Source of the DNA: Bernardetia sp.
GTDB lineage: Bacteria; Bacteroidota; Bacteroidia; Cytophagales; Bernardetiaceae
Reading direction: 5' to 3'
NCBI RefSeq assembly: GCF_020630935.1
Contig: NZ_JAHDIG010000017.1
Coordinates: 1-64,000, forward strand
Length of the DNA: 64,000 nt
Both the position numbers and the translations under genes were made by a program. The notes beneath the pieces are model-generated. The model made no database searches and had not been told where the DNA came from. It saw only the letters and a list, made by a program, of their open reading frames with translations. Of this stretch, positions 12,984 through 20,112 are shown one piece after another. How positions within the stretch are numbered: the first letter of the stretch is position 1; every line of letters starts with the position of its first letter.

Positions 12984-13454
12984 AGTGATAAGTTGTAGGT
13001 GGTAAGTGATAGGAAATAATGTCATTTGATTGTATATTGTACTTTATCCACCTACAACTTTTACAAATGAATAATCCGATAAAAGATAGAAGTTTCAAAA
13101 TTTGCTGTTCGTATTATCAAGCTATATAAGTTCTTGAAAGATGAGAAAAAAGAGTATGTTTTGTCGAAACAGCTATTACGAAGTGGTACGAGTATCGGAG
13201 CGATGATAAGAGAAGCCGAGCACGCAGAAACAAAAAAAGATTTTATACATAAAATGGCAATCGCTCAAAAAGAAAGCAATGAAACCTTGTACTGGTTAGA
13301 GTTACTAAGTGAAACAGATTACCTTTCTACTGAACAGTTTGAGAGTATTCATAAGGATGCAAAATCAATAATGAGTATTGTTACCACTATCATCAAAAAC
13401 ACAAAAAAAGAACTTGAAGAGGAATACATAACTTACCACTTACAACTTATCACT
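12984..13454. repeat. 24-bp inverted repeats enclosing a four-helix-bundle gene
   Basis: The left arm at 12984-13007 begins AGTGATAAGTTGTA and ends GTGGTAAGT. The right arm at 13431-13454 is its reverse complement with 23 of 24 positions matching. The left arm starts 7 bp after the acs stop and the right arm ends at the stop codon of the opposing lipoprotein gene, so the pair encloses the whole spacer and the decayed gene within it. Confidence 0.75.
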
Positions 13455-13574
13455 CAAAGTTTCAGTTCATTATCATTCGGAATTTCATACTCCTTACAAT
13501 CTTTTATAACAGATTTATATGCTGAATCAGAGATATTTACCCACTTTTGTGTTCCAAAATTCTTAAAGAAGTAA
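13067..13574 (+). pseudogene. Frameshifted four-helix-bundle protein (23S rRNA intervening-sequence type)
   Basis: ATG at 13067 starts MNNPIKDRSFK, then the frame runs into TAA. Reading one base later from 13101 gives FAVRIIKLYKFLKDEKKEY and continues into the open frame LSKQLLRSGTSIGAMIREAEHAE. This is the PF05635-type signature (RS..SI.A.I.EA). One extra A in the AAAA run at 13097-13100 explains the break. The 3' end also lacks a stop at the usual length (about 120 aa) and reads through the right inverted repeat into the opposing gene up to 13574. Either a decayed copy or a sequencing indel; the lost stop favours decay. Confidence 0.8.
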
Positions 13575-13981
13575 CGTTTGTCTATACTCTCCAAAAAAAA
13601 CTCCTCCATTTCATAATATGAATTATAGAGTGTGTCATTTGTAACAGAATCAATCGTTTGAATTTGTTTATAGTTTTTTTCTATGCCACGTAGATAAATT
13701 GTTTTGTTACAATAAGCAATCTTTTTAGGCTCTTGGCTTTTTGTCCCTTTCCATTCAATTTCATCATCTGTCAGATAAAGTTTATACTTAAAACTGTGAG
13801 TAGTTCCGTAATTGTGTTTTGTGATAAGCCTAATACTGGTGGTTTCTCTATTTGTTTTTTCTACTTTCAGGTGTTTTCCATTCTCTAAAATTTTACTTTC
13901 TGTCTCAACACTCTCCTCAATGCGACGTTCGCAGCCCAATGCTGTAAAAACAAATATAATTAGTACAATTCCTTTTCTCAT
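13454..13981 (-). CDS. Hypothetical lipoprotein
   Basis: 175 aa. N-terminal lipoprotein signal MRKGIVLIIFVFTALGCERR with lipobox ALGC, so the mature protein begins at Cys17 and is probably periplasmic or outer-membrane anchored. The remainder is polar with several beta-strand-like segments (FKYKLYLTDDEIEW, KTIYLRGIEK). No family recognised. Its 3' end abuts the right arm of the inverted repeat at 13431-13454. Confidence 0.65.
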   Translation of the reverse strand: MRKGIVLIIFVFTALGCERRIEESVETESKILENGKHLKVEKTNRETTSIRLITKHNYGTTHSFKYKLYLTDDEIEWKGTKSQEPKKIAYCNKTIYLRGIEKNYKQIQTIDSVTNDTLYNSYYEMEEFFLESIDKRYFFKNFGTQKWVNISDSAYKSVIKDCKEYEIPNDNELKL

Positions 13982-14151: not shown

Positions 14152-14919
14152 TCATAAAAGTCCTAGTTTTTCCATCAAATCTTCTTTTTTAGATTTCGAA
14201 ACAGGCAGTAAAGTATTGTCTTCTAAAGTTATACTCCCTCCACTTTTTCCTTTCTTGTAAAGACTAACACAATCTAAATTGATAATATGACTTTGGTGGA
14301 TTCTGATAAAAAGTGAAGGATTAAGGCTGCTCTCTAAGTCCTTAATCGTCTTGGAAACCAAAACCTGTTTTCCATCTTTGCAAAAAATATGCGTATAATT
14401 TTTATCAGCTTCTAGGCGAATAATATCTTTTTGAGCTACAATATGTACGCCTTCGGCTGTGGGAAGTGGGATTTTTTCTTTTGAAATAGGATTTTGAAGC
14501 TGCTCTGATAAGGCTTGCAATTGTTGGTTTAGATGGTTATTTTGATTTTTTCCTTTATCATAAAATCGTTTTTTATATTTTTCTAATGCATCTACCAAAT
14601 CATCTTCATCAATCGGCTTTAGGAGGTAATCACAGGCACTAGCACGAAAGGCTTGAATGGCAAATTGATTATACGCTGTTGTGAAAATAAGATCAAAAGG
14701 AATATTTTCCCACTGTTTTAAAAACTCAAAACCACTCATTTCTGGCATTTCAATATCTAAAAAACATAAATCTATTTCGTTTTTTCTTAGAAATTCTGTT
14801 GCCTTAATTGGATTATCAAAAACTTCAATGACTTCTATTCCTTCGCAAAACTCTTCTAGCTGCCACTTCAAAGTCTGCAAAGCTAATTTTTCGTCATCTA
14901 TTAAAATGGATTGTATCAT
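14152..14919 (-). CDS. LytTR family response regulator
   Basis: 255 aa. Receiver domain residues 1-120 with D8/D9 and phospho-acceptor D55 in LCFLDIEMPEMSGFE; LytTR DNA-binding domain about 155-250 (IRLEADKNYTHIFCKDG, FIRIHQSHIINLDCV). It starts 2 bp after the stop of the TPR kinase gene, so the two form a cognate LytS/LytTR-type pair. Target genes cannot be read from the sequence; the secreted protein gene upstream in the same operon is one possibility. Confidence 0.93.
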   Translation of the reverse strand: MIQSILIDDEKLALQTLKWQLEEFCEGIEVIEVFDNPIKATEFLRKNEIDLCFLDIEMPEMSGFEFLKQWENIPFDLIFTTAYNQFAIQAFRASACDYLLKPIDEDDLVDALEKYKKRFYDKGKNQNNHLNQQLQALSEQLQNPISKEKIPLPTAEGVHIVAQKDIIRLEADKNYTHIFCKDGKQVLVSKTIKDLESSLNPSLFIRIHQSHIINLDCVSLYKKGKSGGSITLEDNTLLPVSKSKKEDLMEKLGLL

Positions 14920-14921
14920 TT

Positions 14922-16937
14922 TTACTCTCCCTTATTTTTTAAAGGTAATTTAAGTTCTACTCTTGTTCCGATAGGATTTTGCTCTTCGTCTTTCAAATCT
15001 ATAAATTTCAAAGGTTCAAAATCACATTTATTTTTAGAAAAAAATTCGATACGCTTTCTAGTAATTTCTATTCCATAAGAAGTATGATTTTTAGTAAGCT
15101 CTTTGTCTTGATTTGATTGCCTTCCCACACCATTATCCTCAATGGAAACTAGCAAGTTTTGATTTTTCTCTGTGATTTGAATGGTAAGCTCATTTTTTCT
15201 AGGGTTATTTCGGAAGCCGTGCCAAATTGAATTTTCTACAAAAGGCTGAATCAGAATCGGTGGAATAATAATGTTTTCAGTTTTTAATCCTCCTTCTATA
15301 AAAATAGAATGTTCAAACTCATCTCTAAAACGCAGTTTTTCCAGTAAAATATAAAGTTCTAAAGTTTCCAGTTCTTCTTTGAGTGACACTACTTTTCTTT
15401 GACTATTTTCCAAAACTAAACGAACCAGCTTTGAAAATTTGGAAATATAAATGGCTGCTTTCCTATTTTCTTCTTTGATAATTAGTCCTTTGATACTATT
15501 TAGGGAATTAAAGATAAAATGTGGGTTCATTTGCGCTCTAAATGCTGCTGATTGAGCCTCAGAAAGCTGCCGAAGTTGTTTTTCCTTGGCTGCTAATCTC
15601 GTTTTTTTACTCTGGTAAAGAAAAAATAAAAATCCACCCACAAGCAATGCCAAAACCACAGAAAAGATAGATACCCAACGAGCTAGTTTTGCTTCATTTT
15701 CTTGTTCTTGTAGTTCATTACTAAGTTTCAAAACCTTAATCTGATTTTCCTTTTCCTTCACTTCAAACCTAACAAGCTGTGATTTGACGAGTTTCTGATT
15801 TCTAGCCTTCATCAAATCATATTTGAGTTCCATTGCTTTTTCTTGATAGAAAAGTGCCTTTTTATATCTTCCTTGCCTTTTGAGTTCTTGAACATAAAAC
15901 TTGTACCCCAAACTTAGTTGCTCTTGCATCTTTCGCTTTTCGGCTTCTCTAATAAGTTTTTCAAGATTTATTTTTTTAGAATAATTTGAATCAATAGAAA
16001 CTCGTAAAAATGTTCCTCCTAAATATTCTTCATAGTCGCCCACTTGTACAGATTTGGTAATTACGCTATCCAACATCTGGATTGCTTGTACTGTATCTTT
16101 TGTGGCGATAAAATACTTAGATTTTAACTTATAGAGATAAACGATTGTATTTTGGTCAGATAAAGTTCTGTAACAGTTTTCGGCTTCTTGAATATAAAAA
16201 TAACAAGAATCTAACTTATCTTGATGGTAAAATAAATTTCCAAGGCTCGTTAGAGTAACGCATCGCATCGGAGGGTCTTTTATATTGGTATAGGAAAGGG
16301 CTTTTCTATATGCTTTTTGAGCAGCCTGAAAATCGTAATAAAACTCATTGAGATAACCTATTGCACGAAGAGAATGAGAAATTGAAACTGAATCCTTTGT
16401 AAGAAGTGTAATCTGATACGAGCTATCTAAATAAGTTAAGGCTTTGTCAAATTTAGATTTAGTTTTGTATTCTATACCAATATTAAAATAAAGGTTACTA
16501 ATCTGAATACTGTCTTTCGCTTTTTTAGCATATTCCATTCCCTCTTTATAAATCATTATCGCTGAATCTGGATTACCCAAAGAAGCTAAATTTTGACCAA
16601 AACTATTGTAGGCTTCTATTTTTTTCAATATTGGAAAATCAAAAGGCATTAGTTGGATTGCCTGCTGCATTGCTTCGCTACTCTTATAAATGTCCTCTAA
16701 ATAATAATAAGCGTCGCTACGGATAATATGCAAATGTGCCTTATCAGTTTCAGAAAGATGAGAGGGAGAGGCTAGAATAGAATCACAGGTAGTGAGTGCC
16801 TGTTTTGGAGATTCATCTAAGATGAGATAAATTTTTTCGATTTCTTTGGGCAATAAAAAAGGCTGTGCCTTAGCATTTCCGAACAGAAAAACCAAAACAC
16901 AAACCCAGATTATTTTTTTAGAAAATAGAATTTTCAA
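14922..16937 (-). CDS. TPR-containing LytS-type sensor histidine kinase
   Basis: 671 aa. Signal peptide (VCVLVFLFGNAKAQ), a periplasmic region of TPR-like helical repeats about 30-390, one TM segment near 417-440 (WVSIFSVVLALLVGGFLFFLY), then His_kinase (PF06580) with AAFRAQMNPHFIFNSLNSIK (the phospho-histidine is in NPHF) and HATPase (ENSIWHG, DNGVGR). TPR/His_kinase sensors are common in Bacteroidota and the signal is generally unknown. Immediately upstream of its LytTR regulator. A short CACACAC-TTTA-GTGTGTG hairpin (16968-16985) precedes its start. Confidence 0.92.
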   Translation of the reverse strand: MKILFSKKIIWVCVLVFLFGNAKAQPFLLPKEIEKIYLILDESPKQALTTCDSILASPSHLSETDKAHLHIIRSDAYYYLEDIYKSSEAMQQAIQLMPFDFPILKKIEAYNSFGQNLASLGNPDSAIMIYKEGMEYAKKAKDSIQISNLYFNIGIEYKTKSKFDKALTYLDSSYQITLLTKDSVSISHSLRAIGYLNEFYYDFQAAQKAYRKALSYTNIKDPPMRCVTLTSLGNLFYHQDKLDSCYFYIQEAENCYRTLSDQNTIVYLYKLKSKYFIATKDTVQAIQMLDSVITKSVQVGDYEEYLGGTFLRVSIDSNYSKKINLEKLIREAEKRKMQEQLSLGYKFYVQELKRQGRYKKALFYQEKAMELKYDLMKARNQKLVKSQLVRFEVKEKENQIKVLKLSNELQEQENEAKLARWVSIFSVVLALLVGGFLFFLYQSKKTRLAAKEKQLRQLSEAQSAAFRAQMNPHFIFNSLNSIKGLIIKEENRKAAIYISKFSKLVRLVLENSQRKVVSLKEELETLELYILLEKLRFRDEFEHSIFIEGGLKTENIIIPPILIQPFVENSIWHGFRNNPRKNELTIQITEKNQNLLVSIEDNGVGRQSNQDKELTKNHTSYGIEITRKRIEFFSKNKCDFEPLKFIDLKDEEQNPIGTRVELKLPLKNKGE

Positions 16938-16993
16938 AAGAGATAAATTTGATGATTAATTATGTAGCACACACTTTAGTGTGTGAAGATAAG

Positions 16994-17143
16994 TCAAGAT
17001 ACAAAACGCTTCCCAAACTTGAACCATCCAAAAGCTCCTACAATCAGTGATAACACCACAACATACGCCCAAGTGGGTATTCCTCCACTTTCTGAATTAG
17101 GGTTATCTACATCTGTATCTTTCTGTCCAGACTTTTCAGAAGT
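16994..17143 (-). other. In-frame continuation after TGA: linker and C-terminal membrane anchor
   Basis: Directly after the TGA stop (17144-17146) of the secreted protein gene, the same frame stays open for 49 codons to TGA 16994-16996. The translation has a charged, Gly/Ser-rich linker (TSEKSGQKDTDVDNPNSESG), then a TM helix (WAYVVVLSLIVGAFGW) and a basic end (KFGKRFVS). This is a textbook C-terminal anchor that chance sequence would rarely produce. With it, the protein would be 390 codons and its end would lie 56 bp from the start of the kinase gene. Confidence 0.75.
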
Positions 17144-18166
17144 TCAGCCTTCGGCTAGAGCTTTTATAGCTACATATTCTACTTTGTATCTCGGACAAGT
17201 ATTACAATGACTATCAAAACGTAGTTTTGTCCAGCTTCCACTAGAATAGTCTGAAATCCAGTTATAGCCAGTCAAAGAGTTCATTCCATCTCCATCTTTA
17301 TCTGCCCAAACAGCATACGCTGATATTTTACGGTATTTTTGTCCATTTAGAGAATACGTTCCTTCTTTCCAGTCTGCATCTAAGATTCCAATATAAAGAG
17401 GTTTTTCTTTAAATTCGTTTTCGAAAGCAACAGCGAGTTCTTTCAAAATCTGTTCTTTATTACCTCCTTGCCATTTGTCTTTTGGAAGTGGTGCAGCGTA
17501 TTTGAAGGCGAGATTTTTCTTATCTTCTGCTGTAAGGGTAATTTCGAATTCTCCAGTAGCGACAGGCTCAGTATGTTTGTCTTCTGTCATGCTGTGTCCG
17601 TAGAGTTCTATTTTTACATTATGTGTACCCTCTTCCAAATCTAGTAACGCTAATGTAAATGCTCTTGCCGAAATGTTACGATTTCCATACTTTAACTCTT
17701 CATCATTTTCTTTCGGCAACAAAAAGTGTCTCCACGTCGTCCATTCTTTGAAGGAAGCCATATTTTGTAAATCTAGTTCGGTGTAGTAGTATATATCACG
17801 TCCATTCATTTTGGGTTGCATATCTCCAAAAGTACGTTTAAACTCTACTGGCTTTCCATCGATAGTCATTTTGTAGCCATTTACCATCAGAGCATACTCT
17901 GTATCTCCATTTTGATAAGGCGTATTGGCAAGTGATTTGGCAAGATATATTTTTGAATAAATTGGCTCATCTGCACTAAATGAAGTTTTGAATTTTGATG
18001 GATTTTCATTTTTGAAATTAAGTGCTGTTGGGTCAGAGGCAAAGACAATTTTTCCAACATATTTTGAATGCGTCTCGGAAGTCATGCCTTGGTCTTGTGC
18101 TTGTAGGTGATTCATAGAGAATAAAAATAAAGCAAGTGAAAAAAGATGTTTTGAAATGTATTTCAT
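17144..18166 (-). CDS. Secreted protein of unknown function, interrupted by TGA before a membrane anchor
   Basis: 340 aa up to the first stop. Signal peptide LFSLALFLFSMNHLQAQ, then a soluble region with a repeated beta pattern; EYALMVNGYKMTIDGKPVEF and LDLEEGTHNVKIELYGHSM look like Ig-like or jelly-roll strands. A CNTCPRYKVEY motif lies near the C-terminus. No family recognised. The frame continues past TGA into a linker and TM anchor (16994-17143), so the ancestral product was probably membrane-anchored; the present product may be released. It lies upstream of, and co-directional with, the TPR kinase and LytTR regulator, as an accessory or ligand-binding component might. Confidence 0.65.
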   Translation of the reverse strand: MKYISKHLFSLALFLFSMNHLQAQDQGMTSETHSKYVGKIVFASDPTALNFKNENPSKFKTSFSADEPIYSKIYLAKSLANTPYQNGDTEYALMVNGYKMTIDGKPVEFKRTFGDMQPKMNGRDIYYYTELDLQNMASFKEWTTWRHFLLPKENDEELKYGNRNISARAFTLALLDLEEGTHNVKIELYGHSMTEDKHTEPVATGEFEITLTAEDKKNLAFKYAAPLPKDKWQGGNKEQILKELAVAFENEFKEKPLYIGILDADWKEGTYSLNGQKYRKISAYAVWADKDGDGMNSLTGYNWISDYSSGSWTKLRFDSHCNTCPRYKVEYVAIKALAEG

Positions 18167-18332: not shown

Positions 18333-18495
18333 TTTTCCAACAATTAAAAAAAGTAATTAAAATTACTATTTAAGAACTAGATGAGAGAATCAGTGTTTAG
18401 GTTGCTTTTTAAAAGAATATTTGATTTTGATTGTATCTCAAGTTATATTAGAGTAAAAAAACAGCTCATCTTTGAAAATACTAAAACAAAAAACA

Positions 18496-20112
18496 ATGTC
18501 ATATACTACTCTAACTAAATTAAGGGCATTTCTATCCTTATTTTTTATTTTGCTCTTTTATTTTTCTGCTAATGCTCAAATACAAGTTATTGACCATACT
18601 GAAATTACAACCAAATCAGAACAAGGTTCTGATTTTTCTGATTATACAGCCATAACTCTTGGCAAAGATGGACTATTGGTATCACTTACCCATTTTGTTA
18701 AGTTTAAGAAAGAAATTCTGATTGCTAAGTACGATACTGCGTTTCAAAATATATGGGAGCAAAAACATACTTTGAAAGGAGAGGACAAAATTGCCCATTA
18801 TACCATCTCAGATAATTTCATTTATTATTTAATAGATAAGCAACGTTATGAGTACGAAATATTGAGAATAAATACTGATGATGGAACAATGAAAATTATC
18901 ACTTATGAAAAAATACTCAAAGCAACCTATTCAGAAATATGTGCTTCTAAAAATGTTATTCTTTTAGGAGGCGAAGCAGAAAACAACCCAGTGGTACTTC
19001 ATTTAGATATAGAAACAGGGAAACAGCAATTGTTACCCTCATTAGTACATAAAAACACATATTTGGCTGGTTTAGAAATAGATACGAAAAATGATGTTAT
19101 TTTGGCGATTGTAGCAGGAAAATATAGTTCTTATAAGTATTCTTTCTTTTATTTTTATAGCCTTGATGCAAAACTACGCTACAATGTAACCCTTCCAGAT
19201 AATAAAGATTACAACTTACAAACTTATCGCCCCTTAATAACAGGAAAAGATGAAGTGCTAGTTTTTGGAACATACTCTACTCCAAAATGGAAACGCTCAC
19301 AGGGAATTTATAGCCTCAAAATAGAAAATAAAAAAGAAAATGGGTTTCGCTTCTATGATTTTTCGTACTTGAATAATTTTTTCAATAACCTAAGTGAGAA
19401 AAGGCAAAAGAAAATGAAGGAAAAAGTAAGAAGAGCAAGAAAGAAAAAATCTCCTATACGCTATGCTAACGATTATTTTATTAGTCCCTTAAAAGTAGAA
19501 GAAGACCGTATTTATCTATCTTTAGAAGGTTACAATCCTGTTTATCAAAATAATAATGCTATTCCTAATGGCATGATGGCAGGAAACCCTTATTTTGGAA
19601 GAGGTTCTCGTGTATATAATAACAGAATAGGAAATCGTAATATGTGGCAAAATACCAATAGCTCTAATGTAATAGTTAACTATAAATATGAGCAAGGCAT
19701 GGTATGCAGTTTTGATAAGGAAGGTAAACTTCTTTGGGACAACCAGTTTGATTTTGACGACTTTGAAACCAATAAAATATTTCCTTTTTTCTCTTATAGT
19801 GTGCGAAACGATACAGTAGCTCTTTTCAGATTAGATGAAGAAGAACTGTTTTACAAACAAAGTGTAAAAAGTAAAGAACAATCTCTTATTTCAGAATATG
19901 AAGTACCGAGAAGAGATAGCTTAGATAGAGTTATTGACCGTTCAGATGAAATTTTGATGCACTGGTACGATGATACGTATCTAGTTTCTGGCTATCAAAC
20001 AGTTAGAAATGAAATGTATAGCCCTGCTCGTCGTAAGGTATTCTATTTTACTCGTTTGCGCTATCCTTTTTCAATGGCAGAAGTAAATAAAAAAGAAGAA
20101 GAGGAGGATTAA
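18496..20112 (+). CDS. Secreted protein of unknown function
   Basis: 538 aa from ATG 18496; a TTG at 18472 would add 8 residues before the signal peptide and is less likely. Signal peptide LSLFFILLFYFSANAQ. The body has repeated beta-strand segments with aromatic/aspartate blade patterns (DGLLVSLTHFVKFKKEILIAKYD, quoted only as its start DGLLVSLTHF), suggestive of a propeller-like fold. A basic stretch RQKKMKEKVRRARKKK lies near residue 310. No family recognised. It precedes rnpA by about 50 bp. Confidence 0.6.
   Translation: MSYTTLTKLRAFLSLFFILLFYFSANAQIQVIDHTEITTKSEQGSDFSDYTAITLGKDGLLVSLTHFVKFKKEILIAKYDTAFQNIWEQKHTLKGEDKIAHYTISDNFIYYLIDKQRYEYEILRINTDDGTMKIITYEKILKATYSEICASKNVILLGGEAENNPVVLHLDIETGKQQLLPSLVHKNTYLAGLEIDTKNDVILAIVAGKYSSYKYSFFYFYSLDAKLRYNVTLPDNKDYNLQTYRPLITGKDEVLVFGTYSTPKWKRSQGIYSLKIENKKENGFRFYDFSYLNNFFNNLSEKRQKKMKEKVRRARKKKSPIRYANDYFISPLKVEEDRIYLSLEGYNPVYQNNNAIPNGMMAGNPYFGRGSRVYNNRIGNRNMWQNTNSSNVIVNYKYEQGMVCSFDKEGKLLWDNQFDFDDFETNKIFPFFSYSVRNDTVALFRLDEEELFYKQSVKSKEQSLISEYEVPRRDSLDRVIDRSDEILMHWYDDTYLVSGYQTVRNEMYSPARRKVFYFTRLRYPFSMAEVNKKEEEED

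What the first reader, a model, noticed from the sequence alone, without database searches (positions are those of the whole stretch)
17144..17146. In-frame TGA followed by a linker and a membrane anchor
The secreted-protein frame stops at TGA after LAEG, yet continues for 49 codons in the same frame as TSEKSGQKDT..., a TM helix and a basic end, then TGA. The tail has the ordered features of a real C-terminal anchor. If read through, the gap to the kinase gene shrinks from about 200 to 56 bp. Possibilities: a recent nonsense mutation, programmed readthrough giving released and anchored forms, or a base-call error. A selenocysteine role is unlikely because the position lies in a linker.
Basis: partly seen in the sequence, partly recalled or inferred. 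Interest (0 to 1): 0.65.

Follow-up and report, generated by a model that had tools for sequence, protein, structure and literature searches.

The report
Secreted-protein gene interrupted before membrane anchor
A gene for an uncharacterised secreted protein in a Bacteroidota bacterium is cut by one in-frame stop codon just before a genuine-looking membrane anchor, most likely by a recent nonsense mutation or a base error, which is worth checking but probably ordinary.

Summary
On the minus strand a 340-aa exported protein (17147-18166) stops at TGA 17144-17146. The frame stays open for exactly 49 codons (17143-16997; hydrophilic linker, membrane helix, basic end), then TGA, 56 bp before a histidine-kinase ORF. 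The tail is not chance. Among 1,112 genes of the same genome it is the most coding-like free downstream extension, and none of 10,590 simulated open runs of that length matched its score. A stem-loop of the kind enriched after real stops follows the second TGA, not the first. So the two parts were very probably one ORF. No orthologue was found in the genus, and about 45 distant homologues lack the anchor, so tail conservation cannot be tested. UGA reassignment is not supported (TGA ends 9% of genes), and no tRNA-Sec passes its cut-off. A recent nonsense mutation or a base-call error explains the data with the fewest assumptions. Programmed readthrough is not excluded: UGA-A is a leaky context, and a prophage tRNA-Trp here has a 4-bp anticodon stem, a type shown to raise UGA readthrough in E. 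coli. Nothing positive supports it. Reads or a second strain would decide.

The parts
17147..18166 (-). ORF of a 340-aa exported protein (N-terminal signal peptide), member of an unnamed Bacteroidota family; no Pfam match and no NCBIfam match above cut-off
   Evidence: distant homologues
17144..17146 (-). in-frame TGA, followed by A (UGA-A)
16997..17143 (-). 49-codon open continuation: about 21-residue hydrophilic linker, membrane helix, basic end; coding-like
   Evidence: coding score; simulation
16994..16996 (-). second TGA, probable original end of the ORF
   Evidence: stem-loop follows it
16968..16985 (-). 7-bp perfect stem, 4-nt loop (CACACAC-TAAA-GTGTGTG), 8 nt after the second TGA; z = -3.05; no T-run, so not a canonical intrinsic terminator
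   Evidence: one search reports no terminator-like site here
14922..16937 (-). TPR plus His_kinase (PF06580) sensor, downstream in the same direction
14152..14919 (-). response regulator with LytTR DNA-binding domain

Best explanation
The locus once encoded, or in the living cell still encodes, one ORF of about 390 codons: signal peptide, exported domain, short hydrophilic linker and C-terminal membrane anchor. A single-base change at the domain-linker junction now reads TGA. The change is either a recent nonsense mutation, so the strain makes only a released, anchorless protein and the tail is a fresh relic, or an error in the draft assembly. Shown: the stop, the open frame, the coding-like tail and the stem-loop after the second stop. 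Inferred: that the two parts were continuous, and that the change is recent, because the tail has not yet decayed.
For: The tail has the top coding score of 1,112 free extensions, lies at the 76th percentile of coding windows, and is matched by 0 of 10,590 simulated open runs. It begins directly after the TGA, in frame, with no spacer and with no ATG, GTG or TTG before the membrane segment, so it is not a separate gene with a usual start. A stem-loop follows the second TGA and not the first; such hairpins follow 4.1% of real stops, against 0.18% inside coding sequence and 1.5% upstream of genes. None of the other 92 TGA-ended genes tested in this genome shows a comparable coding tail, which fits an isolated lesion. 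The genome is a 153-contig draft, so a base error is possible.
Against: No orthologue with a sense codon at the site was found. About 45 distant homologues lack the anchor and mostly end at or close to the domain end, so the anchor would be an addition peculiar to this lineage. The TGA sits close to where the family's proteins naturally end.
Confidence: 0.6

Rival explanations
1. Gene end plus relic. The first TGA is the natural family stop, and the tail is the leftover 3' end of another gene whose front was deleted, joined in frame by accident.
For: Complete homologues without a further domain end at or near the domain end with no anchor. The query matches the family model to position 280 of 286, with only about 11 residues left before the TGA.
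Against: It needs a deletion with zero spacer and the right frame (about one in three), and the coding-like signal starts within a few codons of the TGA. No source gene for the tail was found in 19 related genomes or in the genome-contig scan.
Confidence: 0.2
2. Programmed or leaky UGA readthrough: most ribosomes stop and release a soluble protein, and a minority insert Trp and make an anchored form.
For: UGA followed by A is prone to misreading by tRNA-Trp in E. coli (PMC5289835). The linker would probably tolerate any residue. The genome carries a second tRNA-Trp(CCA) with a C27:A43 mismatch, a 4-bp anticodon stem; a 4-bp-stem tRNA-Trp raised UGA readthrough about 2.5-fold when overexpressed in E. 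coli (PMC13092985).
Against: No unusual RNA structure around the stop (z = -0.46). The 4-bp-stem tRNA lies in a prophage, so expression in the host is doubtful. No other gene shows the pattern and TGA is a normal stop here (9%). There is no conservation to show selection.
Confidence: 0.12
3. Chance: the open 49-codon run with a hydrophobic stretch means nothing.
For: Open runs this long follow about 2.6% of stops by simulation, and about a quarter of those contain a helix-like hydrophobic stretch.
Against: 0 of 10,590 such simulated runs reach the coding score, and it ranks first of 1,112 real ones.
Confidence: 0.04
4. Recoding of UGA: selenocysteine, or a genome-wide UGA-to-Trp code.
For: The codon is UGA.
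Against: No UCA-anticodon tRNA appears among those typed. TGA ends 134 of 1,484 genes. The position is a linker.
Confidence: 0.02

Closest known systems
Genes interrupted by a single nonsense mutation or by a draft-assembly base error
   Same: One in-frame stop, no frameshift, the same frame continues with full coding character to a second stop followed by a stem-loop
   Different: The reads that would separate mutation from error, and an intact copy, were not available
Programmed stop-codon readthrough giving C-terminally extended isoforms with a new localisation (e.g. PMC4207609, fungi and animals)
   Same: A leaky-type UGA followed by an in-frame extension carrying a localisation signal
   Different: No conservation, no stimulatory structure detected, no expression data; here a bacterial protein with a membrane anchor
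4-bp anticodon-stem tRNA-Trp(CCA) that reads UGA (PMC13092985)
   Same: The genome carries one with the outermost anticodon-stem pair open (C27:A43), A9 and G24 unchanged, besides a normal 5-bp tRNA-Trp
   Different: It sits in a prophage tRNA cluster, and the genome uses TGA as an ordinary stop

Membership tests
Nonsense-interrupted gene or base-call error | Coding character continues in the same frame beyond the stop | tested here: met
Nonsense-interrupted gene or base-call error | Orthologues have an amino acid at the position | not testable with these tools
   no orthologue found:
Nonsense-interrupted gene or base-call error | Raw reads support (mutation) or contradict (error) the base | not testable with these tools
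   no reads held
Programmed stop-codon readthrough | Leaky stop and following base | tested here: met
   UGA-A; context rule from PMC5289835
Programmed stop-codon readthrough | Stimulatory structure or motif downstream | tested here: not met
   z = -0.46; known sequence motifs were not scanned systematically
Programmed stop-codon readthrough | Stop and tail conserved together across species | tested here: not met
   no orthologue found; 0 of about 45 homologues have the anchor
Selenoprotein | tRNA-Sec in the genome | tested here: not met
   none over cut-off; the top hits are ordinary tRNAs; genome 97% complete
UGA = Trp code | TGA absent as a stop, or frequent inside genes | tested here: not met
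   TGA ends 134 of 1,484 genes
Unnamed exported Bacteroidota family (alignment A1) | N-terminal H-x-K-[NY]-V-G-K-[IV]-[VL]-[FW]-like motif and C-terminal domain detected by profile | tested here: met
   profile hit over model positions 4-280 of 286 (the query is itself a member of A1); independent single-sequence matches E = 6.6e-10 to 1e-9

The most novel reading that the evidence does not exclude
The UGA is a functional leaky stop: the cell makes mostly a released form and a minority membrane-anchored form of a protein encoded beside a sensor-kinase/LytTR pair, and the ratio rises when a prophage expresses its 4-bp-anticodon-stem tRNA-Trp.
Probability: 0.05. Interest if true: 0.8.

Novelty: new member of a known kind. 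Interest (0 to 1): 0.27.

Why it matters
If it is a mutation or error, it is a small correction: the annotated protein lacks its real C-terminus, and automatic annotation would miss the anchor. If the readthrough reading were true, it would be a bacterial protein split into soluble and anchored forms by a leaky UGA, in an organism that also carries an unpaired-stem tRNA-Trp. That would make a proposed but physiologically untested effect of such tRNAs directly testable.

Tried and rejected
Searched for orthologues in the genus, order, class and phylum and in 84,980 species, in viral contigs and in plasmids: only distant homologues. The best tail matches in related genomes that I inspected were chance: one antisense to a peptidase gene, two in the membrane region of a 301-aa transporter-like protein, one in an unrelated frame. 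Tail as a separate small gene: no ATG, GTG or TTG in frame before the membrane segment. Selenocysteine and an altered code: rejected. Structure prediction without an alignment was too poor to use (mean pLDDT 38), so no fold search was run. A profile search of genome contigs failed because no stretch was conserved enough. The short inverted repeat with GGC just before the TGA (AGCC-GAA-GGCT) could be an Illumina error motif; papers on it were listed but not read, so it carries no weight.

Full report
Observation. The minus-strand ORF 17144-18166 encodes a 340-aa protein with a signal peptide. It ends at TGA 17144-17146. The same frame stays open for exactly 49 codons to a second TGA at 16996-16994, encoding TSEKSGQKDTDVDNPNSESGGIPTWAYVVVLSLIVGAFGWFKFGKRFVS.

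Is it more than chance? Length alone is not: in this AT-rich genome 14 of 1,112 genes with a free downstream region have at least 49 open codons, and 2.6% of simulated extensions do. About one is therefore expected among the genes of a window this size. Codon content is different. A codon log-odds model was trained on 1,484 ORFs and on intergenic sequence of the same genome. It gives the tail +16.3 bits, against a mean of 11.0 (sd 7.7) for real coding windows (76th percentile) and about -8 for shadow frames, of which 0.8% reach it. It is the highest of all 1,112 free extensions. Some of the next long ones look like ordinary small downstream genes. In a third-order Markov simulation of downstream sequence, none of 10,590 open runs of at least 49 codons reached it. 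Caution: the linker supplies most of the score (13.9 bits) and the membrane segment little (2.4), and one antisense frame is open with +9.8.

Second line of evidence. A 7-bp perfect stem-loop (16985-16968) starts 8 nt after the second TGA and the region folds better than shuffles (z = -3.05). Hairpins of that grade near the stop follow 4.1% of genes here, but occur in 0.18% of coding windows and 1.5% of upstream regions; none follows the first TGA. It lacks a T-run and is not a canonical terminator. It points modestly to the second TGA as the original 3' end.

Relatives. The protein has no Pfam match and no NCBIfam match above cut-off. No orthologue was found in 39 genomes, the other 38 being relatives that include six other species of its genus, and no close relative in the genome-contig scans for domain or tail. 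The flanking gene at 18472-20112 is 75-78% identical in five of the six congeners searched, but in the two inspected (L054, L055) the segment beside it lacks this gene and the kinase pair. The segment therefore looks species-specific. Distant homologues exist across Bacteroidota, and the genome has one paralogue (contig C62). In about 45 homologues the protein ends at or within about 25 residues of the domain end, or carries a different C-terminal domain. None has a C-terminal membrane anchor of this kind. The same data leave room for the rival that the first TGA is the natural end and the tail is a relic. Zero spacer, correct frame and coding signal from the first few codons on make that less likely.

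Recoding. No tRNA-Sec passes the Rfam threshold; the best hits are ordinary tRNAs. TGA ends 9% of genes, and none of the other 92 TGA-ended genes with a free downstream region shows a comparable coding tail. A local stimulatory structure is not evident (z = -0.46). UGA-A is a context prone to misreading by tRNA-Trp (PMC5289835), and UGA is the leakiest stop in E. coli reporters (PMC11126739).

A side finding bears on readthrough. Besides a normal tRNA-Trp (C22), the genome has a second tRNA-Trp(CCA) in a six-tRNA cluster on C42, whose neighbours look like phage structural genes, a terminase-like ORF and an integrase-like ORF (by inspection). Its anticodon stem has a C27:A43 mismatch and so only four pairs, with A9 and G24 unchanged (sequence). 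A tRNA-Trp with such a stem raised UGA readthrough in E. coli when overexpressed. The published survey found the strictly defined form together with a normal tRNA-Trp in only 62 genomes (PMC13092985). Cluster relatives in three congeners keep a five-pair stem. This gives a conceivable, not demonstrated, route to readthrough.

Verdict. Most likely this was one ORF with a C-terminal anchor, now interrupted by a single-base nonsense change that is recent or is an error in a 153-contig draft. Programmed readthrough is possible but unsupported. Function of the protein: an exported, probably once anchored protein encoded next to a TPR-His_kinase/LytTR pair; a partnership with that pair is a guess from position only. 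The genus is probably Bernardetia-like (Cytophagales): this is inferred from my own knowledge of genome sizes and gene content, not from a named record.

Noticed in passing
G000:C42:33732-33802 (L165 433-504; [quoted passage not shown] related clusters in congeners G002, G003 and G006 have a 5-bp stem.
   Followed up: partly
L257 (G184:C36:18006-18632): A distant family member has an in-frame TGA within the domain where a relative (L255, G406) has Trp (GTCTVW versus GTCTV-stop); probably a pseudogene.
   Followed up: no
L041, L072, L073, L075, L077, L078 and similar loci: The N-terminal part of this unnamed family occurs fused to what looks like a serine-hydrolase (beta-lactamase-like) domain in other Bacteroidota; domain call from memory of motifs, not tested.
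   Followed up: no
L049 8201-9589 (G000:C62): The only paralogue found in the genome also lies a few kb from a TPR-histidine-kinase and LytTR-like regulator pair, with no membrane tail.
   Followed up: partly
L171 (G000:C19:37180-37263): ARAGORN reports a tRNA with a four-base anticodon (gcag), and nearby an unusually short tRNA-Leu(CAA).
   Followed up: no
L168 (G000:C24:13900-14400): tRNA-Gln(TTG) followed by a second copy with a repeated internal segment, reported as intron-bearing; looks like a tandem partial duplication.
   Followed up: no
window 13134-13574 +: 23S rRNA-intervening-sequence-type protein (PF05635), convergent and overlapping with the 13454-13981 ORF on the other strand.
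   Followed up: no
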